From positions 62,001 to 126,000 of the forward strand of contig JAKIVD010000001.1 in NCBI GenBank assembly GCA_021647205.1: a stretch of DNA of 64,000 nt. Reading direction: 5' to 3'. Position numbers and translations under genes: made by a program. Each line of letters opens with the position of its first letter. Positions within the stretch are counted from its first letter, which is position 1. The notes under the pieces were generated by a model, which was given only the letters and a program-made list of their open reading frames with translations, was not told where the DNA came from and did no database searches. Source of the DNA: Bacteroidales bacterium. Its GTDB lineage: Bacteria; Bacteroidota; Bacteroidia; Bacteroidales; F082. This document shows, in pieces, positions 12,355 to 57,588 of this stretch.

Positions 12355-14847
12355 TCACTCGTGGAAATAAATCCGCTTCACCCTTCGTGAGATACGGCTG
12401 AGGATTTCGTAAGGAATAGTGCCTGCTGCCTCTGCCAGTTCCGAAACAGGATGGTTCTCGTCAAAAACGATTACTTCGTCACCTTCTTTCACATCCAGGC
12501 CTTCCAGGTCAACCAGGCACATGTCCATGCAGATGTCGCCAACGATCGGGACGGCTTTGTTTTTGATCCACAAATTAGTTTTACTGTTGCCGAGGCTGCG
12601 CAACAAGCCATCGGCATAGCCAATGGAAACAATGCCGATGGTCATGTCGCCGGGTGCAATAAAGCTCCGGTTGTAACTCGCCGAATCCCCTTTTCTCAAC
12701 TGCTTAATCTGCGCCAGGGCCGATTTAAGGACGGTAACGCTTTGCAGTTTTCCCTCATCAGCCGCCACAGTGGGGATGCCATACAAACCGATGCCGAGGC
12801 GCACCATGTCGAAACAAGCTTCGGGGAACCGGCTGATACCCGCCGAGTTCAGGATGTGCAGCAGCACTTTCTGCCCAAAACTGCCGGCAATTTTTTCGCC
12901 CATCTTTTTAAACCTTGCAATTTGTTCGCGGGTGAAACCATCAAGTTCCGGTTTATTGCTGCCGGCAAGGTGCGAAAAGACAGACTGAACAAAAATCAAG
13001 GGGTTCTTTTGAATTTTGGAAATCAACTCATCAATTTCTTCTTCAACAAATCCCAGGCGGTGCATGCCCGTATCCACTTTGATATGTACTTTCACCGGTT
13101 TGTTCTGCGGGAGTGCATTTCGCCGGATGGCCTTTTGCAATAATTTCAGCGCCCTGAAACTGAAGATTTCGGGTTCGAGCTGGTGTTTGATCATGGTGTC
13201 GAAAGCATATTCTTCGGGGTTCATCACCATGATGGGCAGTTTAATACCGGCTTTCCTGAGTTCGACACCCTCATCGGCATAAGCCACAGCAAGGTAAGCA
13301 GCATGGTGAAACTGCAGCACATTCGCTATTTCGAATCCGCCGCTTCCATACGAAAAGGCTTTGACCATGGCCATCACCTTGGTATTTGCGGGCAGTTTCG
13401 ACCTGAAATAATTCAGGTTGTGGGTAAGCGCATCGAGGTTGATTTCCAGTACTGTTTCGTGCACCTTTTGCTGCAGGATGCGGCTGATCTGCTCGAACTC
13501 AAAAACACGTGCCCCCTTCAACAGAATGGTTTGGTTGGAGAAATTTGAAAAAGGGTAAGCAGCCAGGAATTTGGAAGTGCTCTCAAAAAAATATCCCGGG
13601 ATGGCAAATTTGTCGGCCTGCCGGCTGATGGCCGGGCCGATACCGATTAGAAGATCCACCCCCTTTTTTTCAAGGAGGGATGCCACTTCCCCGTACAAAT
13701 CAACTTCGTTCCGCCCACTCTGGAGGATATCGGAAAGCACCACTACTTTTTCGCGGTGCCGGCTTTGCTGGTTCATAAAATCGAGGGCAATGCTCAGCGA
13801 ATTAAAATCAGAATTGTACGCATCGTTAATGATGGTGCAATTGTTCACCCCGGCTTTCAACTCAAGGCGCATGGCGATGGGCGAAAGTTTCAGCATCCTT
13901 TCACTGATGGTTTGGTTGGCATAACCCAGTTCCAGCAGGGCCGCCCAGCAATGTGCCGCATTTTCCACAGAAGCTTTGTCGGCAAAAGGAATGACAATCT
14001 GTATTTCTTCTCCTTTGTATTTCGCGGTGATTCTCGTCGTTTTTTTTTCAGGTTCGGTATGGATAATCTGCAGATCGCAATTGTTGTTTTTCCCCCAGGT
14101 GAAACTCCTGATATTGCCCAGGATGCCGGTGGAGATGATGGCCTCCTGTAAATCTTTCTGATCCGAATTGTAAATAAGCACTTTTACTTTGGTAAACAGG
14201 GCGAGTTTCTCGCCAATTTTTTGGCGGGTGTTCATAAAGTTCTCGGCATGGGCCTGGCCGATATTTGTAAAAATACCGATGTCGGGATGAAGGATGGCCT
14301 GGAGCTTTTGCATTTCATCCGGTTTGGATATGCCCGCTTCAAAAACAGCAAGTTCATGCTCTGCGTTCATTTGCCAGACCGAAAGCGGAACCCCGATTTG
14401 CGAATTGTAGCTTTTCGGGCTTCGAACAATATTTTTATCCGCGTTCAGCAATTGGTAAAGCCACTCTTTAACAATGGTTTTTCCATTGCTTCCGGTAATG
14501 CCGATGACCGGGGCCCGAAAGTTGGCACGGTGTGCGGCGGCCAGTTTTTGCAGGGCTTCCAGCGTGTTGTCAACAATAAAAAAATGGGCACCTTGTAAAC
14601 TGCCATGGTCTTTCGGGAGCCGCGAAACCACGAAAGACTTTATACCTTTTTTGTACAATTCACCAATGTATTTCTCCCCATTGTTCCGGTCTGTTTCGAG
14701 TGCAAAAAACAAACTGTTTTCGGCGGAGATTAACCTTCTGCTGTCAATAAGGATGTCCCGCACCCCGATTTGTCCGGGATTATCTGACACCAGTTCGGCC
14801 TGTAATATCCGGATAATTTCATCTCCTGTGTACAAATGGTGGATCAT
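12355..14847 (-). CDS. Bifunctional MurF ligase / alanine racemase
   Basis: An 830-residue fusion. The N-terminal half is UDP-MurNAc-tripeptide:D-Ala-D-Ala ligase, with the ATP loop GITGSNGKTIVKEWL and the Mur-ligase IINDAYNSDFNS region. From about residue 463 it is a fold type III PLP racemase: Lys496 in VKAFSYG binds PLP and Tyr725 in ASYNRSF is the second catalytic base; GIGLYG and GDICMDMC are further marks. The enzyme makes D-alanine and adds D-Ala-D-Ala to the peptidoglycan precursor. This fusion is standard in Bacteroidota. Length is normal. The gene follows pdxA by 17 bases and is probably cotranscribed; both use or make pyridoxal phosphate. Confidence 0.96.
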   Translation of the reverse strand: MIHHLYTGDEIIRILQAELVSDNPGQIGVRDILIDSRRLISAENSLFFALETDRNNGEKYIGELYKKGIKSFVVSRLPKDHGSLQGAHFFIVDNTLEALQKLAAAHRANFRAPVIGITGSNGKTIVKEWLYQLLNADKNIVRSPKSYNSQIGVPLSVWQMNAEHELAVFEAGISKPDEMQKLQAILHPDIGIFTNIGQAHAENFMNTRQKIGEKLALFTKVKVLIYNSDQKDLQEAIISTGILGNIRSFTWGKNNNCDLQIIHTEPEKKTTRITAKYKGEEIQIVIPFADKASVENAAHCWAALLELGYANQTISERMLKLSPIAMRLELKAGVNNCTIINDAYNSDFNSLSIALDFMNQQSRHREKVVVLSDILQSGRNEVDLYGEVASLLEKKGVDLLIGIGPAISRQADKFAIPGYFFESTSKFLAAYPFSNFSNQTILLKGARVFEFEQISRILQQKVHETVLEINLDALTHNLNYFRSKLPANTKVMAMVKAFSYGSGGFEIANVLQFHHAAYLAVAYADEGVELRKAGIKLPIMVMNPEEYAFDTMIKHQLEPEIFSFRALKLLQKAIRRNALPQNKPVKVHIKVDTGMHRLGFVEEEIDELISKIQKNPLIFVQSVFSHLAGSNKPELDGFTREQIARFKKMGEKIAGSFGQKVLLHILNSAGISRFPEACFDMVRLGIGLYGIPTVAADEGKLQSVTVLKSALAQIKQLRKGDSASYNRSFIAPGDMTIGIVSIGYADGLLRSLGNSKTNLWIKNKAVPIVGDICMDMCLVDLEGLDVKEGDEVIVFDENHPVSELAEAAGTIPYEILSRISRRVKRIYFHE

Positions 14848-17105: not shown

Positions 17106-17754
17106 CTACCGGCCCCCAAACTGGAGCTGGCGATCAAGTTTTTTAATTATCTCAAATCTTTTGGCAATTTCGGTTTGGTCATCTTTGTATTCCGACGACA
17201 ACAATTGTTTGAACTCGGCCATCAGTCCCGGATAATCCTTAATTAACCACTCCATTCCGATATCGTTTAAAATAAAGTATTTATCCTTATCAAAACTATA
17301 AGCAACGCCCCTTTTGCAGCAATATAAAGTCAATCTTTTCCCTGACATTTAACCATTCTGTCTTTCTTAACTCATCTTCTACGACAACGTTCGACATAAA
17401 CAGAACAAAATGGTCGCCGAGATAATCTATCTGGTTATATCCCGGATTAAAGGAAAACTTGCTGTTGCTGATGTAAAGCGTATCCTTCCAAACCACTCCC
17501 CAAAGCCCCCATTTAATAAACTCTCTTTTTAAGCTTTTATCTGTTGGAACTACTTTAAACATCGAACCTCCAAAATCGCTAATTTTCCCCTCATTGCGTT
17601 TAACAATTGCAAACTGGTTGATGAACAAAGGCGTATTGTTTAAAAAGCCGTTGGTGGTTTTGTATGCGCCATCCGGCATTTCTACTTCCCGGGAAAAGGA
17701 GCTGATCACTAAAATCAGCATAAATAAGGATGTTATTTGGCAGGCCAGCCTCAT
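17106..17754 (-). pseudogene. Hypothetical exported protein split by a +1 frameshift
   Basis: Two overlapping frames together make one protein of about 215 residues. The first part (17296-17754) has a signal peptide (MRLACQITSLFMLILVISSFS) and a DGAYKTTNGFLNNTPLF opening seen in a family of small exported Bacteroidota proteins; it ends LLQKGRCL at a stop. The second frame (17106-17348) continues with VAYSFDKDKYFILNDIGMEWLIKDYP. Removing one base in the run AAAAGGGG (plus-strand 17308-17315) joins them as LLQKGVAYSFDKDKY. It is either a real inactivating indel or a sequencing error. It begins 6 bases after the regulator gene's stop, so the two are probably one operon. Confidence 0.75.
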
Positions 17755-17759
17755 AACAA

Positions 17760-18416
17760 TCAATCCAGTTCAATGATATTGTTTTTAATCGCAAACTTCA
17801 CCAAATCAACCGTGGTTTTCAGGTTGATTTTTTTCATGATGTTGTTTTTATGCGTTTCAACCGTACGCACACTGATGAACAATTTATCGGCAATGGTGCG
17901 GTTCGACAGGCCTTCGGCAAAAAGCCGCAGTATTTCCATCTCCCTTGCCGAAAGGGCTTTCTGCCTGGTTTCTTTTTCGCTTTTGTCCATGTTTTTGTCA
18001 CTCAGGTAACTGTTCAGCAAAAGGTTGGTGATGGTTTTGGCATAAAACTCATAACCGTTGCGCAGGGTGTAAATGGCTTCAATAATTTCCAAACGGTCGG
18101 TGTCGCTGCTTAAATGGCCTTTCACCCCGGCCCTGATCAGTTTGAGGATAAAGTGTTCTTCGTGAAAGAGCGAGAGAATAAGGATTTTCGTTCTGGGAGA
18201 ACGTTCCGATAAAAGTTTGATATCATTCACGTCCATCTGGTTCGGACGGTAGAGGACAGCCAAAACTATATTGGCCTGCACCTCTGGCAGCAACCTTGCC
18301 ATCTCCCTGATACTTACACTAAAAGGGCCGACTTCAATATCTTCAACTCCCTGCAAAAGTGCAGACAACGCATCGCAAATTACCGCATGTTCATCAACCA
18401 ATGCAACTTTAATCAT
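17760..18416 (-). CDS. NarL/FixJ-type regulator with degenerate receiver
   Basis: A 218-residue protein with an N-terminal receiver-like domain (about 1-120) and a C-terminal LuxR helix-turn-helix (LSAREMEILRLFAEGL, SVRTVETHKNNIMKKI). The acidic pair is present (Asp8, Glu9), but the residue at the phosphorylated Asp position is Val54 (NIVLAVLYRP) and the conserved Lys position is Ser104 (KGHLSSD). Normal phosphorylation is therefore unlikely; control may be by ligand or partner binding. It is divergent from the receiver/ATP-grasp gene at 18510 and is followed by the frameshifted exported-protein gene. The target genes are unknown; autoregulation and control of the neighbour are natural guesses. 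Confidence 0.88.
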   Translation of the reverse strand: MIKVALVDEHAVICDALSALLQGVEDIEVGPFSVSIREMARLLPEVQANIVLAVLYRPNQMDVNDIKLLSERSPRTKILILSLFHEEHFILKLIRAGVKGHLSSDTDRLEIIEAIYTLRNGYEFYAKTITNLLLNSYLSDKNMDKSEKETRQKALSAREMEILRLFAEGLSNRTIADKLFISVRTVETHKNNIMKKINLKTTVDLVKFAIKNNIIELD

Positions 18417-18481
18417 ACCTCAACCACGTTTAGATTGGATGAAAAAGCGAAAATACGAAATGTTAATTCAATTATTCAAAT

Positions 18482-18489
18482 TAACTTTG
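18482..18489 (+). promoter_or_regulatory. -7 box TAACTTTG upstream of the receiver/ATP-grasp gene
   Basis: Consensus octamer 20 bases before the ATG at 18510, in the 93-base spacer shared with the divergent regulator gene. It decides against the longer reading frame beginning at 18387, which would start upstream of this promoter. Confidence 0.6.
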
Positions 18490-18509
18490 CCACAGGAAAT
18501 CTGAACCCC

Positions 18510-21500
18510 ATGCCAGAAAACGAAACTTCATTCCACCTGAGCCTGCTCGAAACCATCAACAAAGCAAATCGTGTTGTTGCCCAACTGAAGGATGTTGACG
18601 AAACCATGACCCAGTTGGTGGAAACCCTTCCCGAAAGGAAAGGACGCTCCCGGACTGCTTTCTTCCGGATTATTTTTGAAGGCCGCGAATACAAAACCTC
18701 TGGCCTTGTGGAAACAAATATTTGCAGCGAAAGAAGTTTCAAAACAAGCACGGGCAAAAAAGTTCACCTGCAGTTTTGTGTTACACGTGACGAACCGGAA
18801 ATGACTTATTGGCTGAAAGAACAATCCAATTTCCTGAACAGCATGCTGGCCATCCTGACCAAATACCTGAACAGCATCGAACGAAAAGAAAAAGCCGGAA
18901 AAATTATTGCCACACCCCGCAGCGACGACTTCCGTGCTCCCATCGGAACCCGGTTTCTCCAAAAATTTCTTAACAAAAATACTTACAACCGTGATGTTTA
19001 CCACGATTTGATGCCGTTCAAAGTCAGTGAAATTTTACTTATCTCCAGCCTTTACGATGCCTACGCCATCGAAAAAGAAGGCCGTTTTTCGGAGCACATG
19101 CTCGGCCAGTATGGCCAACTGAACTTAACTTCCTTTCCCCGTATAACAGGTGCCTCCTCTGCAATACAAGCACTGGAATTATTGAAAGCCAAGCATTTCG
19201 ACCTCATCATTTACATGGTTGGTGTGGACAAACAGATGCCGATACTCGTAAGCGAACAAATTAAAAAAGACTATCCATACATCCCCATTTTTCTGCTGTT
19301 GAACAACAATGTTGATGTCAGCTATTTTACTCAGCAACAAAAAAAGTATTCTTTTATTGACAACCTCTTCGTCTGGAATGGTGATGCCAACATCTTCTTT
19401 TCGATGATAAAGCTACTGGAAGACCAGGTGAATGTGTGGAACGACACCAGCCTGGGACAAGTACGTGTGATTTTGTTTGTGGAAGATTCTCCGATATATT
19501 ATTCGCGTTACCTCTCGTTCATGTACCGCGTTTTGATGGCTCAGACCAAACGGATAATCGACGATGTTAGTTCCGATGAATTGTACAAAGTGTTGCGCAT
19601 GCGCGCCAGGCCCAAGTTGTTGCTGGCCACCAGCTACGAAGAAGCCCTGGAAATAATTGACAACTACAAAAAATACATGCTTTGCCTGATTACCGATGTG
19701 AAATTTGAGAAAGATGGTGCTTTTAATGAAAATGCCGGTGTCGAGTTGTTGAATTATGTGCACAAAGAATTTAAAAACCTGCCCACCATTCTTCAGTCTT
19801 CCGATTTGTCCTATAAAGAAACCGCTGAGGAGTACGGTTCATTTTTCATCCACAAACATTCCGAAACACTTTATCAGGATTTCGAGCATTTTATTACCAA
19901 CTACCTCGGTTTCGGCGATTTTGAGTTTAAAGACAAAGCCGGGCATGTTGTGGCCGTGGCCAACAGCATGAAAAGTTTTGAGAAATACCTCAAGGTTATC
20001 CCCGACGAATCCCTTGTTTTTCATGCGAGCCACAATCATTTTTCCATGTGGTTGATGGCCAGGGGCGAAATCAAGGCCGCCAGTTTTATCAATCCCAAAA
20101 AAGTAACTGATTTTGCCTCTACCAGGGAATTGCGCAACGCCCTGCTGGGCTTGATGAAGGAATACCGCAACGAGCAGGACAGCGGCAACATACTGCCCTT
20201 CAGCGAAGAACTGGAAATAACAGAGAAAAACATTTATTTGCTGGGTGATGGTTCCATGGGCGGAAAAGGCCGTGGCTTGTCCTTTGTCAATGCACTTATC
20301 AACAATTTCAATATGCAGAGCAGGCTCCCCGGCATTTCTATCAGGACACCCAAAACATTTGTCATCGGCACCAGCGAATTTGAATCATTTATCAAATACA
20401 ACGACCTGTCCGGTACTATTGTAAACGAACAGGACTTTTCAAAATTAAAAAAGACTTTCATTTCCGGGAGTCTTTCCCACTCGCTCGAAACCAAACTGGG
20501 TCAATTGCTCGAGGTTATTCAGCAACCATTGGCCGTCCGCTCCTCCGGTTTGTTTGAAGACTCACTGGCCCAGCCTTTTGCCGGGATTTTCGACACCTAT
20601 TTATTGCCCAATAACCATCCCGATAAAACCGTCAGGCTCCGCCAATTGGGCAACGCCATTAAACTGGTGTTTGCCTCTGTTTATTCCGATACCGTCAAAG
20701 CTTATGCAAAAGCTATTGACTATAAGCTCGAAGAGGAAAAAATGGCAGTCGTCATCCAGGAAGTAGTGGGCGAAAGGCACGAAGACTTGTTTTATCCGAG
20801 CATCAGCGGGGTGGCCCAGTCTTACAATTATTATTCGTTCGCCCACATGAAGCCCGAGGAAGGCTTTGCCGTGGCAGCGGTTGGTTTGGGAAGGTACGTT
20901 GTTGAGGGCAACAAGGCTTACCGTTTTTCACCAAAGTACCCCGGCACCGAAATTTATTCCCCCAAAGACCAGTTCAGGAATTCACAGGTCAGGTTTTATG
21001 CGGTTGATTTGACCAAAAAAAACCTGGATTTATTGGAAGGTGAAGCGGCAGGTCTCGCCATGGAAGATGTTTCTGTCGCCGAAAGGCATGGCAGTTTAAA
21101 ACATTGTGCGTCTGTTTACAACCCTGACAGCGACACCATTTACCCGGGGCTCACTAAAGCCGGGCCGCGTATCCTTAATTTCGCCAATGTGCTGAAATAC
21201 AATTATACCCCGCTGGCCAAAACCCTCGAGGTGGTGCTCGAACTGGGAAAGGACGCCATGGGCACAGCCATTGAAATTGAATATGCGGTCGATCTGAGAA
21301 AAGATAAAGACGGACGGGCTTCTTTTTATATTTTGCAGATTAAACCGCTCATCAGCAATTCCCGCGAATGCAATATTGACCTGGAAAAGATTGTAAAGGA
21401 AAACATCATTTTGTATTCGGAGCAAGGGATGGGCAATGGATATTTCAACCACATTTCCGATGTTATTTACGTTGACCCTGAGCGTTTCGACAAAACGAAA

Positions 21501-21941
21501 ACACTGGAAATGGCGGGAGAAATCGAGGCGTTTAACGACATTCTGGTAAATGACAACCGGCAGTACGTCTTGATTGGCCCCGGAAGGTGGGGGACCCGGG
21601 ACAGGTGGATTGGCATTCCGGTGAAGTGGTACCAGATTTCAAATGCCAAAGTAATTGTGGAAACCAGCGTGGACGATTACCCGCTTGATGCCTCCTCGGG
21701 CTCACATTTTTTCCACAATGTAACCAGCATGAATGTAGGTTATTTCACCGTCCAGCACCAACACACAAAGAGCAGGATCGAGTACCAAAGCCTCGGCATG
21801 CAAAAGGTCATCAAAAAAGGAAAGTTTTTTACACACGTACGGTTTGAACATCCCCTGCACATTGAAATGGATGGAAAAAAACGTATTTTCTTAATCCATC
21901 AGCACAGCCGGGAAAATACTGCCAAAGGGGAAAAACACTGA
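18510..21941 (+). CDS. Receiver-domain / PEP synthase-type ATP-grasp fusion protein
   Basis: A 1143-residue soluble protein. About 1-130 is an N-terminal helical region. About 173-305 looks like a receiver fold without a phosphorylatable Asp. About 318-468 is a fuller receiver: Glu325-Asp326 in LFVEDSP, Asp396 in LCLITDVKF and Lys449 in FIHKHS. From about 575 it matches the PEP/pyruvate-binding ATP-grasp domain of PEP synthase and PPDK: GSMGGKGRGLSFV, AVRSSGLFEDSLAQPFAGIFDTYL and FYILQIKPL. The last 190 residues hold GPGRWGTRDRWIGIP and GSHFFHNVTSMNVGYF, a module I cannot assign; the swivelling His domain (TSHAA) and PEP barrel of true PEP synthase are absent. It probably phosphorylates or binds something under signal control; the reaction is unknown. 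Confidence 0.85.
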   Translation: MPENETSFHLSLLETINKANRVVAQLKDVDETMTQLVETLPERKGRSRTAFFRIIFEGREYKTSGLVETNICSERSFKTSTGKKVHLQFCVTRDEPEMTYWLKEQSNFLNSMLAILTKYLNSIERKEKAGKIIATPRSDDFRAPIGTRFLQKFLNKNTYNRDVYHDLMPFKVSEILLISSLYDAYAIEKEGRFSEHMLGQYGQLNLTSFPRITGASSAIQALELLKAKHFDLIIYMVGVDKQMPILVSEQIKKDYPYIPIFLLLNNNVDVSYFTQQQKKYSFIDNLFVWNGDANIFFSMIKLLEDQVNVWNDTSLGQVRVILFVEDSPIYYSRYLSFMYRVLMAQTKRIIDDVSSDELYKVLRMRARPKLLLATSYEEALEIIDNYKKYMLCLITDVKFEKDGAFNENAGVELLNYVHKEFKNLPTILQSSDLSYKETAEEYGSFFIHKHSETLYQDFEHFITNYLGFGDFEFKDKAGHVVAVANSMKSFEKYLKVIPDESLVFHASHNHFSMWLMARGEIKAASFINPKKVTDFASTRELRNALLGLMKEYRNEQDSGNILPFSEELEITEKNIYLLGDGSMGGKGRGLSFVNALINNFNMQSRLPGISIRTPKTFVIGTSEFESFIKYNDLSGTIVNEQDFSKLKKTFISGSLSHSLETKLGQLLEVIQQPLAVRSSGLFEDSLAQPFAGIFDTYLLPNNHPDKTVRLRQLGNAIKLVFASVYSDTVKAYAKAIDYKLEEEKMAVVIQEVVGERHEDLFYPSISGVAQSYNYYSFAHMKPEEGFAVAAVGLGRYVVEGNKAYRFSPKYPGTEIYSPKDQFRNSQVRFYAVDLTKKNLDLLEGEAAGLAMEDVSVAERHGSLKHCASVYNPDSDTIYPGLTKAGPRILNFANVLKYNYTPLAKTLEVVLELGKDAMGTAIEIEYAVDLRKDKDGRASFYILQIKPLISNSRECNIDLEKIVKENIILYSEQGMGNGYFNHISDVIYVDPERFDKTKTLEMAGEIEAFNDILVNDNRQYVLIGPGRWGTRDRWIGIPVKWYQISNAKVIVETSVDDYPLDASSGSHFFHNVTSMNVGYFTVQHQHTKSRIEYQSLGMQKVIKKGKFFTHVRFEHPLHIEMDGKKRIFLIHQHSRENTAKGEKH

Positions 21942-54211: not shown

Positions 54212-55048
54212 ATGAGCAAAATACTGGAAAAGGAGTTTTTTTCTGAAAACGTAGTCAAACTTGTTTTGGATGCTCCTGAAATTGCCCGCAGCCGTAAGCC
54301 GGGGCATTTTGTTATTATTAAAATCGACAAAAGGGGTGAGCGGATTCCGCTGACCATTGCCTCCTCCGATCCCGAAAAAGGAACCCTCACACTCGTGGTA
54401 CAAAAAGTAGGGGTTACTTCGGCAAAGCTGGCCGCCATGCAGGTAGGCGACGAAATTATGGATGTGGTGGGCCCGCTGGGAAAAGCAACCCACATCGAAA
54501 AGGTCGGGACTGTGCTGTGCGCCGGCGGAGGCGTTGGCGTGGCGCCGCTGCTTCCCATTGTGGAAGGGTTTAAAAAAGCAGGCAACCGCGTGATTACGGT
54601 ACTGGCTGCGAGGAATAAAGACCTGGTCATCCTCGAAGAACAAATGCGCGAGTTTTCTGACGAAGTCATTGTCATGACAGACGATGGTTCTTCCGGGAAA
54701 AAAGGCCTCGTTACTGCCGGGATGGAAGAAGTGATCCAACGCGAAAAAGTTGACCTTTCCGTTGTGATTGGCCCGGCCATCATGATGAAATTTGCCGCCC
54801 TGACGACCAAAAAATACAACATCGAAACTTATGCCAGCCTCAACACCATTATGGTTGATGGAACAGGCATGTGTGGTGCCTGCAGGGTCAGCGTTGGCGG
54901 AAAAACAAAATTTGTTTGTGTTGACGGTCCAGAATTCAATGCACACCAGGTTGACTTTGACCAGATGATGTCGCGCCTGGGTGCTTACAAAGACCAGGAG
55001 ATTGAAGCCTACGAAAAATATTTACAAACTGTTGAGATTGACGGATAA
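54212..55048 (+). CDS. NfnA/SudB-type FAD/NAD-binding subunit (2Fe-2S)
   Basis: A 278-residue protein of the ferredoxin-NADP reductase-like family: FAD site in GERIPLTIASSD, nucleotide site in LCAGGGVGVAPLLPI, and a C-terminal 2Fe-2S site with cysteines in GMCGACRV and FVCVDGPEFNAH. This is the small subunit of NADH-dependent ferredoxin:NADP oxidoreductase (Nfn) or sulfide dehydrogenase, close in build to PyrK. It pairs with the next gene, whose start codon overlaps its stop (TAATG). Cytoplasmic. The Nfn reading is favoured over PyrK because of that partner. Confidence 0.88.
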   Translation: MSKILEKEFFSENVVKLVLDAPEIARSRKPGHFVIIKIDKRGERIPLTIASSDPEKGTLTLVVQKVGVTSAKLAAMQVGDEIMDVVGPLGKATHIEKVGTVLCAGGGVGVAPLLPIVEGFKKAGNRVITVLAARNKDLVILEEQMREFSDEVIVMTDDGSSGKKGLVTAGMEEVIQREKVDLSVVIGPAIMMKFAALTTKKYNIETYASLNTIMVDGTGMCGACRVSVGGKTKFVCVDGPEFNAHQVDFDQMMSRLGAYKDQEIEAYEKYLQTVEIDG

Positions 55049-56535
55049 TGGAAAATATACTCGAATATTTGAAAGCCGAGAGAAGTCAGGAGTGGCGCAC
55101 TGAAATCAGAAAGAGCATGAAGGCGAAGGACCGCATGGCGAAAGTTCGTACCGAAATGCCCGAAGAAGACCCGAACATCAGGAACACCAGTAATATCGAG
55201 GTCAACTCAGGCCTGACTGCAGAACAGGCTGTCCTCGAAGCACAGCGCTGTATCGACTGCCCGAGCCCGACCTGTATCACGGGATGCCCTGTTGGGATCA
55301 ACATTCCAAAGTTCATCAAGAAAATTGAAACGGAAGACTTTTTGGGTGCCGCCGAAGTGCTGAAAGACACCAATGGCCTGCCGGCAGTTTGCGGCCGCGT
55401 TTGCCCACAGGAAAAACAGTGTGAAGCCCAGTGTTTCTACACCATCAAAATGGACAAGCCACCGGTCGCCATCGGCTACCTTGAGCGCTTTGCAGCCGAC
55501 TTTGAAAGGGACAGCGGTCAAATGGCCATCCCCGACACGGACGAGTTCAACAACATTAAACTGGCCGTTATCGGCTCCGGGCCCGCCGGATTGGCTGCTG
55601 CAGGCGACCTCGCCAAATTTGGTTACGATGTTACAGTTTTTGAAGCCCTCCACGAAATTGGCGGCGTCCTGAAATACGGTATCCCCGAATTCAGGCTGCC
55701 CAACGAGGTAGTTGATGTAGAAATTGAAAGCCTCCGCAAAATGGGTGTTAAATTCAGGACCAACTTTATTGTTGGAAAGACCGCTTCTTTCGAGGATTTG
55801 AAAGAAGAGGGTTACCAGGCCTTTTTCGTGGGAAGTGGTGCCGGATTGCCCCGTTTCATGAACATTCCGGGAGAAAACTTCAACGGTATTTTCTCCTCTA
55901 ACGAATACCTCACCCGCGTCAACCTGATGAATGCCGCCAATCCCGATTTTGACACACCCGTCATCAGCGGAAACCTCGTAGCAGTTATTGGCGGCGGGAA
56001 CACAGCCATGGACTCGGTGCGTACCGCCAAACGGCTTGGCGCCGAAAGGTCGATGATCATTTACCGCCGTTCGGAAGAAGAAATGCCCGCACGGGTTGAG
56101 GAAGTCAAACATGCCAAAGAAGAAGGTATCGAGTTTATGAACCTCCACAATCCGCTGGAATATTTTGCGGACGAAAAAGGACGCGTGAACAAAATGAAAG
56201 TCCAGAAAATGGAATTGGGCGCGCCTGATGCTTCGGGCCGACGCAGACCAATCCCAATCGAAGGCTCCGAGTTTATGATTGATGTGGACACGGTCGTTGT
56301 GAGTGTCGGCGTTTCACCAAACCCGCTCATCCCTGCCAGTTTGCCCAATTTAAAAGTAACCGACTGGGGCACCATCGTGGTGGACAAAGAAACCATGCAG
56401 TCGTCCATTCCCGAACTGTTTGCCGGTGGCGACATCGTCAGGGGCGGTGCCACGGTAATCCTTGCCATGGGCGATGGCCGAAAAGCAGCTGCCGGGATGC
56501 ACCAGTACATCATGGAAAAAATAAAAGCAAATTAG
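55048..56535 (+). CDS. gltA: NfnB/GltD-like NADPH-binding flavoprotein subunit
   Basis: A 495-residue protein with an N-terminal domain holding two cysteine sets for 4Fe-4S clusters (CIDCPSPTCITGCPVGINIP and CGRVCPQEKQCEAQC), an FAD site (AVIGSGPAGLAAAGDLAK) and an NADPH site (VAVIGGGNTAMDSVRTAKRLGA), ending GGATVILAMGDGRKAAAGMHQY. It belongs to the glutamate synthase small subunit family often annotated gltA/NADPH-dependent. With the preceding gene it should form an Nfn-type complex exchanging electrons between NADH, NADPH and ferredoxin. No glutamate synthase large subunit is adjacent, which argues against a role in ammonia assimilation. Confidence 0.9.
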   Translation: MENILEYLKAERSQEWRTEIRKSMKAKDRMAKVRTEMPEEDPNIRNTSNIEVNSGLTAEQAVLEAQRCIDCPSPTCITGCPVGINIPKFIKKIETEDFLGAAEVLKDTNGLPAVCGRVCPQEKQCEAQCFYTIKMDKPPVAIGYLERFAADFERDSGQMAIPDTDEFNNIKLAVIGSGPAGLAAAGDLAKFGYDVTVFEALHEIGGVLKYGIPEFRLPNEVVDVEIESLRKMGVKFRTNFIVGKTASFEDLKEEGYQAFFVGSGAGLPRFMNIPGENFNGIFSSNEYLTRVNLMNAANPDFDTPVISGNLVAVIGGGNTAMDSVRTAKRLGAERSMIIYRRSEEEMPARVEEVKHAKEEGIEFMNLHNPLEYFADEKGRVNKMKVQKMELGAPDASGRRRPIPIEGSEFMIDVDTVVVSVGVSPNPLIPASLPNLKVTDWGTIVVDKETMQSSIPELFAGGDIVRGGATVILAMGDGRKAAAGMHQYIMEKIKAN

Positions 56536-56589
56536 TGTCATTCCTTCAGGTTCAACCAGAAAAACATATTCATAAAAACAATTATTAAG

Positions 56590-57588
56590 ATGGCAGATTT
56601 AACCACAAAATACCTCGGACTTACCTTAGCCAACCCCATTATCGTGGGCAGCTCAGGGCTGACCGATTCATTGAGCAAAATCGTGGAACTTGAAAAAAAC
56701 GGTGCCGGTGCGGTCGTGCTAAAGTCACTGTTCGAGGAACAGATTATGCTTGAGGCTGACCACCGCCTGAAAAAGGCTGAAGCCGATGGCATGCTTTATT
56801 CCGATTATTCTGAGACACTCGACTATATTGATGTTTTTATCAAAGAAAAGGAGCTCAGCAGTTACCTCCAATTAATACATGATGCAAAAAGCAAGGTGCT
56901 CATGCCGGTGATTGCCAGTGTAAACTGTATCAGCACAATGGAGTGGACTTCGTTTGCAAAGCAAATTGAAGAAGCCGGTGCCGATGCGCTGGAACTCAAC
57001 ATCTTTGTCATGCCTTTTGACCCCGACAAGGCCTGCTCCGACAATGAGTTGCGGTATTACGAAATCTTGAGGAAAGTAAAGAAAACGGTCAACATTCCGG
57101 TGGCGGTAAAAATCAGCCCCTATTTTTCAAATCTCGGTAAAGTCATCATCAACCTGGAAGAAAACGGAGCAAATGCGGTCGTGCTGTTCAACCGTTTTGC
57201 CAGCCCCGACATTGACATCGACAACCTCAAGGTTACGGCTGCCGAGGTATTCAGTACGCCCCAGGAGATTTCCAATTCGCTACGCTGGATTGCCATGATG
57301 GCCAAACGGACGAAAACCCAACTGGTTGCTTCAACAGGTATTCACGACGGCCCTGCAGTCATCAAGCAATTGCTGGCAGGGGCAACGGCTACCCAGGTTG
57401 TTTCAGCCATTTACAAGCATGGCCCTGAATACATTGTCGAATTGCTCGACTTTGTGAATAAGTGGATGGAAGGCAAAGCTTACAACTATATCGACCAGTT
57501 TCGCGGCAAGCTCAGCCAGGCAAGTACTGAACACCCAGATGTTTACGAGCGCATGCAGTTTATGCGCCATTTCAGCGATATTAAGTAA
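56590..57588 (+). CDS. Dihydroorotate dehydrogenase-like flavoprotein (not a standard PyrD)
   Basis: A 332-residue TIM-barrel protein opening YLGLTLANPIIVGSSGLTDS and closing with a phosphate/FMN region (TQLVASTGIHDGPAVIKQLLAGATATQVVSAIY). It resembles DHODH class 1, but the catalytic segment that normally reads N-x-SCPN is LELNIFVMPFDP, lacking the Cys or Ser base. It probably is not a pyrimidine enzyme. It lies 54 bases after the NfnB-like gene on the same strand; the PyrK-like NfnA protein suggests a three-protein electron-transfer complex. The substrate is unknown. Confidence 0.83.
   Translation: MADLTTKYLGLTLANPIIVGSSGLTDSLSKIVELEKNGAGAVVLKSLFEEQIMLEADHRLKKAEADGMLYSDYSETLDYIDVFIKEKELSSYLQLIHDAKSKVLMPVIASVNCISTMEWTSFAKQIEEAGADALELNIFVMPFDPDKACSDNELRYYEILRKVKKTVNIPVAVKISPYFSNLGKVIINLEENGANAVVLFNRFASPDIDIDNLKVTAAEVFSTPQEISNSLRWIAMMAKRTKTQLVASTGIHDGPAVIKQLLAGATATQVVSAIYKHGPEYIVELLDFVNKWMEGKAYNYIDQFRGKLSQASTEHPDVYERMQFMRHFSDIK

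What the first reader, a model, noticed from the sequence alone, without database searches (positions are those of the whole stretch)
17760..21941. Divergent pair: unphosphorylatable NarL-type regulator and receiver-ATP-grasp fusion
The 1143-residue protein joins a degenerate receiver, an apparently complete receiver and a PEP synthase-type ATP-grasp domain, then a C-terminal module with GPGRWGTRDRWIGIP and SGSHFFHNVTS. It lacks the swivelling His and PEP barrel domains of PEP synthase. Next to it, read the opposite way, is a regulator that cannot be phosphorylated in the normal way. This looks like a signal-controlled phosphotransfer or nucleotide-binding device of unknown output.
Basis: partly seen in the sequence, partly recalled or inferred. 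Interest (0 to 1): 0.68.

Follow-up and report, generated by a model that had tools for sequence, protein, structure and literature searches.

The report
Sensor-controlled kinase linked to glutamate dehydrogenase
This Bacteroidales protein joins signal-receiving domains to an ATP-driven phosphohistidine engine like that of PEP synthase but with no pyruvate domain, and across its phylum relatives usually sit beside glutamate dehydrogenase genes, so it may switch that nitrogen enzyme on or off.

Summary
In detail: an NarL-type regulator (17760-18416, -) without the receiver Asp or Lys, divergent from a 1143-aa protein (18510-21941, +) with a pseudo-receiver, an intact receiver and a PPDK-type ATP-grasp domain.

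One reading must be corrected. The C-terminal 190 residues are a divergent swivelling phosphohistidine domain. An AlphaFold model of the last 573 residues aligns through ATP-grasp and His domain to PEP synthase (Z 26.5), PPDK (Z 19.1) and rifampin phosphotransferase (Z 26.2), and His1066 is invariant in 154/154 relatives. Sequence profiles do not detect this. The PEP/pyruvate barrel is absent, so this is not a PEP synthase.

New finding: across Bacteroidota 47/59 receiver-bearing relatives and 13/15 receiver-less relatives lie within 500 bp of a glutamate dehydrogenase (GDH) gene. In five related genomes the order is [this gene]<- ->[pseudo-receiver regulator]->[GDH]. Distant GDH-linked relatives add a nucleotidyltransferase domain. 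In the window's own genome GDH is not adjacent.

Best explanation: a sensor- and receiver-gated dikinase that phosphorylates its own His, lacks an acceptor domain in cis, and acts in control of GDH/glutamate metabolism; GDH as the direct target is inference. New variant of a known kind.

The parts
17760..18416 (-). NarL/FixJ-type regulator with pseudo-receiver (V54 for Asp, S104 for Lys) and intact LuxR-type HTH
18417..18509 (.). 93-bp divergent intergenic region between the regulator and the long gene
18510..21941 (+). 1143-aa receiver / ATP-grasp / phosphohistidine-fold fusion protein
18510..18899 (+). N-terminal sensor-like unit (residues ~1-130); the same unit occurs in a histidine kinase of the same genome and in 3-4 tandem copies in two relatives
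19023..19424 (+). REC1 pseudo-receiver (residues ~172-305; no Asp in 126/126, Trp at the Lys position)
19461..19904 (+). REC2 intact receiver (residues ~318-465; E325/D326, D396, S430, K449)
19905..20219 (+). conserved linker region (weak DUF5752 similarity in two relatives)
20220..21362 (+). PPDK_N ATP-grasp domain (K586, R677, T696, E922, E924, Q943 invariant)
21387..21905 (+). divergent swivelling phosphohistidine-fold domain (residues ~960-1132)
21705..21707 (+). codon of His1066, the proposed phosphoryl carrier, invariant in 154/154 relatives

Best explanation
The 1143-aa protein is a sensor- and receiver-gated dikinase. Its ATP-grasp domain binds ATP and, as in PPDK, PEP synthase and rifampin phosphotransferase, moves the beta-phosphate onto His1066 of a divergent swivelling domain, giving AMP and Pi. 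No acceptor domain follows, so the phosphoryl group is passed to a partner in trans (or to the protein's own second receiver). The N-terminal sensor-like unit and the Asp396 receiver set whether the engine runs. The system acts in the control of glutamate dehydrogenase and glutamate/ammonia metabolism; GDH, or something that controls it, is the most likely acceptor. The divergent regulator is a phosphorylation-independent transcription factor of the same module, read in the same direction just upstream of GDH in related genomes. Shown: domain anatomy, residue conservation, predicted fold, gene linkage. Inferred: catalysis, direction of transfer, GDH as target, role of the regulator.
For: ATP-grasp catalytic residues and H1066 126/126, His 154/154 in a wider set. 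The C-terminal model alone (pLDDT 89.9) has as its top four VIA matches two pyruvate-kinase C-terminal domains and two PPDK central domains (Z 6.0-6.5). The core model (pLDDT 91.6, pTM 0.89) aligns over 350-359 residues to PEPS 2ols 8-465 (Z 26.5) and PPDK 1dik 7-511 (Z 19.1), i.e. ATP-grasp plus His domain; Foldseek E 8e-14 to rifampin phosphotransferase. GDH within 500 bp of 47/59 receiver-bearing and 13/15 receiver-less relatives, against roughly 0.2-0.3% by chance (the chance value is my own estimate). GDH is the commonest neighbour in the phylum and Bacteroidaceae sets and second to the regulator in the window-lineage set. long<- ->RR->GDH in L277-L281. Distant GDH-linked relatives carry PF01909 nucleotidyltransferase domains. 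HK+RR pairs lie between family and GDH genes in other genomes.
Against: No biochemistry. The His domain is not detectable by sequence: Pfam none, hhalign P 0.03. In the window's own genome the two GDH genes are on other contigs; in the window's order only 15/67 long genes are seen within 3 kb of a GDH (lower bound), and in Bacteroidaceae-like genomes only 17/80 within 500 bp. Linkage does not show that GDH is modified.
Confidence: 0.55

Rival explanations
1. Intramolecular phosphorelay: the ATP-grasp/His core acts as a non-canonical histidine kinase whose phosphohistidine (H1066) charges Asp396 of the protein's own second receiver, which then signals to GDH or to the regulator by contact.
For: Intact receiver with all active-site residues in 126/126 (Asp326 in 122) in the same chain as an invariant His; receivers take phosphoryl groups from phosphohistidine (established knowledge).
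Against: Receiver-less 576-636-aa forms keep the His and the GDH linkage (13/15), so the core has a task without a receiver in cis. HK+RR pairs beside some copies could phosphorylate the receiver instead.
Confidence: 0.17
2. Metabolic dikinase: the core phosphorylates a small molecule of glutamate or ammonia metabolism, the acceptor being bound elsewhere in the protein or by a partner, and receivers tune the flux.
For: The characterised enzymes of this fold named here phosphorylate small molecules (pyruvate, rifampin, aromatic ketones; PMC4844700, PMC12167813). GDH, alanine-aminotransferase-like and GltA/Nfn-like genes are neighbours.
Against: No acceptor domain follows or is inserted in the 580-aa forms. 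Sensor units, a pseudo-receiver and an intact receiver suggest regulation rather than bulk flux.
Confidence: 0.18
3. Ordinary PEP synthase or PPDK variant.
For: PPDK_N domain and a His-domain fold in the same order as PEPS/PPDK.
Against: No PEP/pyruvate barrel; the chain ends ~10 residues after the His domain. The same genome has a separate standard PPDK (C37).
Confidence: 0.04

Closest known systems
PEP synthase / pyruvate phosphate dikinase (ATP-grasp plus phosphohistidine domains)
   Same: ATP-grasp domain with invariant Lys/Arg/Glu/Gln, followed by a swivelling domain; core model aligns over 350-359 residues
   Different: no PEP/pyruvate barrel; His motif S-x-G-x-H-F-F instead of the TSHA-type motif; receivers and sensor unit added
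Rifampin phosphotransferase (RPH)
   Same: best Foldseek match (E 8e-14), Z 26.8/26.2; ATP-grasp plus swivel His
   Different: no rifampin/acceptor-binding domain; His domain directly after the ATP-grasp
HpeHI two-component dikinase (PMC12167813)
   Same: HpeI ATP-grasp matches the core (Z 19.8); precedent for dikinases split over partners
   Different: there the His and acceptor domains share a separate chain; here ATP-grasp and His share a chain and the acceptor is missing
GlnE/GlnD nitrogen-control enzymes (from memory)
   Same: works like: covalent control of a nitrogen-assimilation enzyme is what the linkage suggests; distant relatives have a nucleotidyltransferase domain
   Different: no shared architecture; the window protein has no nucleotidyltransferase domain; modification of GDH is not shown
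Desulfovibrio nitrate cluster DVU0246/DVU0247 (PMC4001038)
   Same: a PPDK-like protein gene beside a receiver gene, with a stress-resistance phenotype when mutated
   Different: separate genes, classical PEP-utilising mobile domain annotated, no GDH reported

Membership tests
PEP synthase / PPDK | PPDK_N ATP-grasp domain with catalytic residues | tested here: met
   Pfam E 8e-38; K586, R677, E922, E924, Q943 126/126
PEP synthase / PPDK | swivelling phosphohistidine domain after the ATP-grasp | tested here: met
   met at fold level on predicted models; not met by sequence profile
PEP synthase / PPDK | C-terminal PEP/pyruvate-binding barrel | tested here: not met
   chain ends ~10 residues after the His domain
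Rifampin phosphotransferase | rifampin-binding domain between ATP-grasp and His domains | tested here: not met
   ATP-grasp and His-fold domains are contiguous
PEP-utilizers mobile domain PF00391 | match to the family profile | tested here: not met
   PF00391 not among the matches of any of 50 C-termini at E up to 10; HMMER's filters drop most matches above E 0.1
Phosphorylatable receiver (REC2) | acidic pair, Asp, Ser/Thr, Lys | tested here: met
   D326 122/126, D396 126/126, S/T430 126/126, K449 126/126
NarL/FixJ response regulator (divergent gene) | GerE/LuxR HTH | tested here: met
   PF00196 E 7e-21; conserved in relatives
NarL/FixJ response regulator (divergent gene) | phosphoacceptor Asp and Lys in the receiver | tested here: not met
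   V54, S104; Asp absent in 32/34 relatives
Dikinase chemistry | ATP to AMP + Pi with phospho-His intermediate | not testable with these tools
   needs biochemistry
GDH-modifying enzyme | covalent modification of GDH that changes its activity | not testable with these tools
   only gene linkage is shown

The most novel reading that the evidence does not exclude
A previously undescribed family of receiver-gated phosphohistidine enzymes is the post-translational switch of glutamate dehydrogenase in Bacteroidota, the counterpart for GDH of the GlnE/GlnD control of glutamine synthetase, built from a PEP-synthase-type engine without an acceptor domain.
Probability: 0.33. Interest if true: 0.85.

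Novelty: new variant of a known kind. Interest (0 to 1): 0.64.

Why it matters
GDH is a main entry point of ammonia into amino acids in many Bacteroidota, including gut species, and its fast control there is poorly understood; from memory (not found in the held library) reversible inactivation of GDH in Bacteroides fragilis was reported in the 1980s with no enzyme named. A conserved, GDH-linked phosphohistidine enzyme with its own sensors makes that question directly testable. It would also be a PEP-synthase-type engine used for signalling rather than for metabolism, with a His motif that present profiles miss.

Tried and rejected
Sequence-profile proof of the His domain: hhalign against PPDK-type His domains gave only P 0.03 on a 19-column stretch, and global mode gave nothing; rejected as evidence. 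Foldseek on the C-terminal domain alone gave no match below E 0.3; VIA-align and the larger core model were needed. My first GDH count in Bacteroidaceae-like genomes (3/58) was a parsing fault (the last query's score overwrote the best); corrected (17/80). Pfam on the N-terminal unit: GAF in 1 of 35 members at E 0.05 only, so it is called sensor-like from its presence in a histidine kinase, not GAF. A promoter-pattern scan gave a chance-level number of matches. Defence-system library: no match for the long protein. Literature searches for a described GDH link of this family found nothing, and for reversible GDH inactivation in B. fragilis nothing in the held library.
Full report
OBSERVATION. 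The window holds a 218-aa NarL-type regulator (17760-18416, -) and, 93 bp away and divergent, a 1143-aa protein starting at ATG 18510. Pfam finds PPDK_N at 582-961 (E 8e-38) and a weak receiver; the last ~190 residues match no Pfam family. The genome is a Bacteroidales (inferred: its order contains genome G329, whose contig length of 151,698 bp equals that of Bacteroides pyogenes record NZ_JACIDI010000008.1).

FAMILY. 92 of 100 relatives have a match. Two forms exist: long (~1140 aa, with an N-terminal extension) and short (~1000 aa, no extension); the window's genome has both (C22 and C17). A phylum-wide sample adds ~580-aa forms without receivers and distant 760-1080-aa forms without a receiver match.

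RECEIVERS. Over 126 receiver-bearing members the first receiver never has the Asp and always has Trp at the Lys position, so it is a fixed pseudo-receiver. The second has Asp396, Lys449 and Ser/Thr430 in every member, Glu325 in 125 and Asp326 in 122. The divergent regulator has lost Asp in 32 of 34 relatives and Lys in 32 of 34 while its HTH is conserved; two members from other families of the order keep the Asp, so the loss is probably derived.

N-TERMINAL UNIT. Residues ~1-130 belong to a unit (ERLKEL...DEGPFL.EER) present once in most long members, three to four times in tandem in two relatives, and in a histidine kinase with receiver, PAS-like and GAF-like parts in the same genome (the kinase's parts are my reading of the sequence). 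I call it sensor-like; its ligand is unknown.

C-TERMINAL DOMAIN. The His of SGSHFF (His1066) is invariant in 154/154 sequences, including the distant forms, where the motif reads SFGTHFFQDLVE. AlphaFold models it confidently (pLDDT 89.9), with the His at the first residue of a helix (117-124) after a beta strand. Among 999 chains the four best VIA matches are the C-terminal domains of two pyruvate kinases (3t05 474-580, 2e28 471-582; PEP-utiliser domains from memory) and the PPDK central domain (5lu4 377-509, 1kbl 376-508), Z 6.0-6.5; the other rows I recognise (chaperonin and transferrin-receptor apical domains, aconitase, LD-carboxypeptidase) also belong, from memory, to the swivelling beta/beta/alpha fold. 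The PPDK central domain is aa 380-515 (PMC5371819). Z 6 alone would be weak, so I modelled the core (571-1143; pLDDT 91.6, pTM 0.89). It aligns to PEP synthase 2ols 8-465 (Z 26.5, rmsd 4.2, 359 residues), PPDK 1dik 7-511 (Z 19.1, rmsd 5.1, 350 residues) and RPH 5hv3 7-849 (Z 26.2, rmsd 4.0, 343 residues). These ranges run through the His domains (RPH His domain 767-865 with His825; PMC4844700). A pure ATP-grasp match ends near model residue 380, as other rows show. I conclude that the domain is a phosphohistidine-type swivelling domain. The tools give no residue-level structural alignment, so the equivalence of His1066 to the catalytic His rests on its invariance, its place at the start of the helix, and the ranges. 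By sequence the relation is not significant. The pyruvate barrel is absent: ~10 residues follow the domain.

GDH LINKAGE. Neighbours of other members turned out to be glutamate dehydrogenases of two types: 445 aa, NCBIfam NADP-specific-type GDH, and ~428 aa, closest to archaeal-type GdhA models. In the phylum-wide sample 47 of 59 receiver-bearing genes and 13 of 15 receiver-less 580-aa genes are within 500 bp of a GDH, mostly on the same strand; the distant forms are either adjacent (11/31) or often ~1.8 kb away behind the 580-aa gene. With two to three GDH genes per 3.7-Mb genome the chance value is roughly 0.2-0.3% (my estimate). Clustering of neighbours gives GDH as the top cluster in the phylum sample (54 of 80 loci) and in the Bacteroidaceae-like set (25 of 80); in the window-lineage set the regulator is first (21/39) and GDH second (18/39); the small short-form set has no dominant neighbour. 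In the Bacteroidaceae-like set 17/80 are within 500 bp (one search was a faulty count). In five related genomes (L277-L281) the order is long<- ->regulator->GDH; in others long<- ->GDH. Thus the window's pair most likely descends from a GDH-linked arrangement; in its own genome the GDH genes lie elsewhere (C40, C12).

OTHER CLUES. Distant relatives next to GDH carry a C-terminal nucleotidyltransferase domain (PF01909, E 1e-4 to 3e-8, motif GS...SDIDL). Some clusters contain a PAS histidine kinase and an intact NarL-type regulator between GDH/family units. Alanine-aminotransferase-like genes are recurrent neighbours (12 loci), and GltA/Nfn-like genes in the window's family.

MECHANISM. Shown: ATP-grasp with full catalytic set; predicted fold and invariant His of the carrier domain; intact receiver; missing acceptor domain; GDH linkage. 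Inferred: ATP + His1066 gives His-P + AMP + Pi; transfer in trans; gating by sensor unit and Asp396; GDH or its controller as acceptor; the regulator as phosphorylation-independent transcription factor of the module. Rivals are an internal relay to Asp396 and a small-molecule dikinase of glutamate metabolism.

KNOWN KINDS. The engine is of the PPDK/PEPS/RPH kind; RPH and HpeHI show that the same engine serves different acceptors and can be split over chains (PMC4844700, PMC12167813). It is not a PEP synthase (barrel absent) and not RPH (acceptor domain absent). I found no description of a GDH-linked, receiver-fused member in the library searched. I therefore rate it a new variant of a known kind.

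Noticed in passing
window 54212-57588 versus L039 10387-13760 and L041 10669-14031: Sulfide/dihydroorotate-dehydrogenase-like (NfnA-like), NADPH-dependent glutamate synthase GltA-like and dihydroorotate-dehydrogenase-like genes directly follow the long gene in other genomes, but lie ~32 kb downstream in the window, with large secreted-protein genes in between: an insertion or rearrangement.
   Followed up: partly
L089 7024-10218 and ~25 similar loci (e.g. L257, L106, L107): Distant PPDK_N/His-fold relatives, many beside GDH, carry a C-terminal nucleotidyltransferase domain with the GS...SDIDL motif; a possible second modifying activity. A few (e.g. L259, L260, L104) have lost that motif.
   Followed up: partly
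L057 3711-8363 and L058 5897-10090: Relatives with four and three tandem copies of the N-terminal sensor-like unit, with the regulator gene downstream in the same direction; the L057 regulator keeps its Asp and Lys, L058's Asp is Asn.
   Followed up: partly
window 17296-17763: DUF6563 gene that starts 4 bp inside the end of the regulator gene and reads the same way; possible co-expressed gene of unknown role.
   Followed up: no
window 12355-14847: 830-aa ORF that reads as a MurF-type ligase fused to an alanine racemase (from the sequence and memory).
   Followed up: no
G000:C16 near 89500-93400 (L004): A second PPDK_N plus PEP-utiliser protein with a TSHAA motif, distinct from the standard PPDK on C37.
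   Followed up: no
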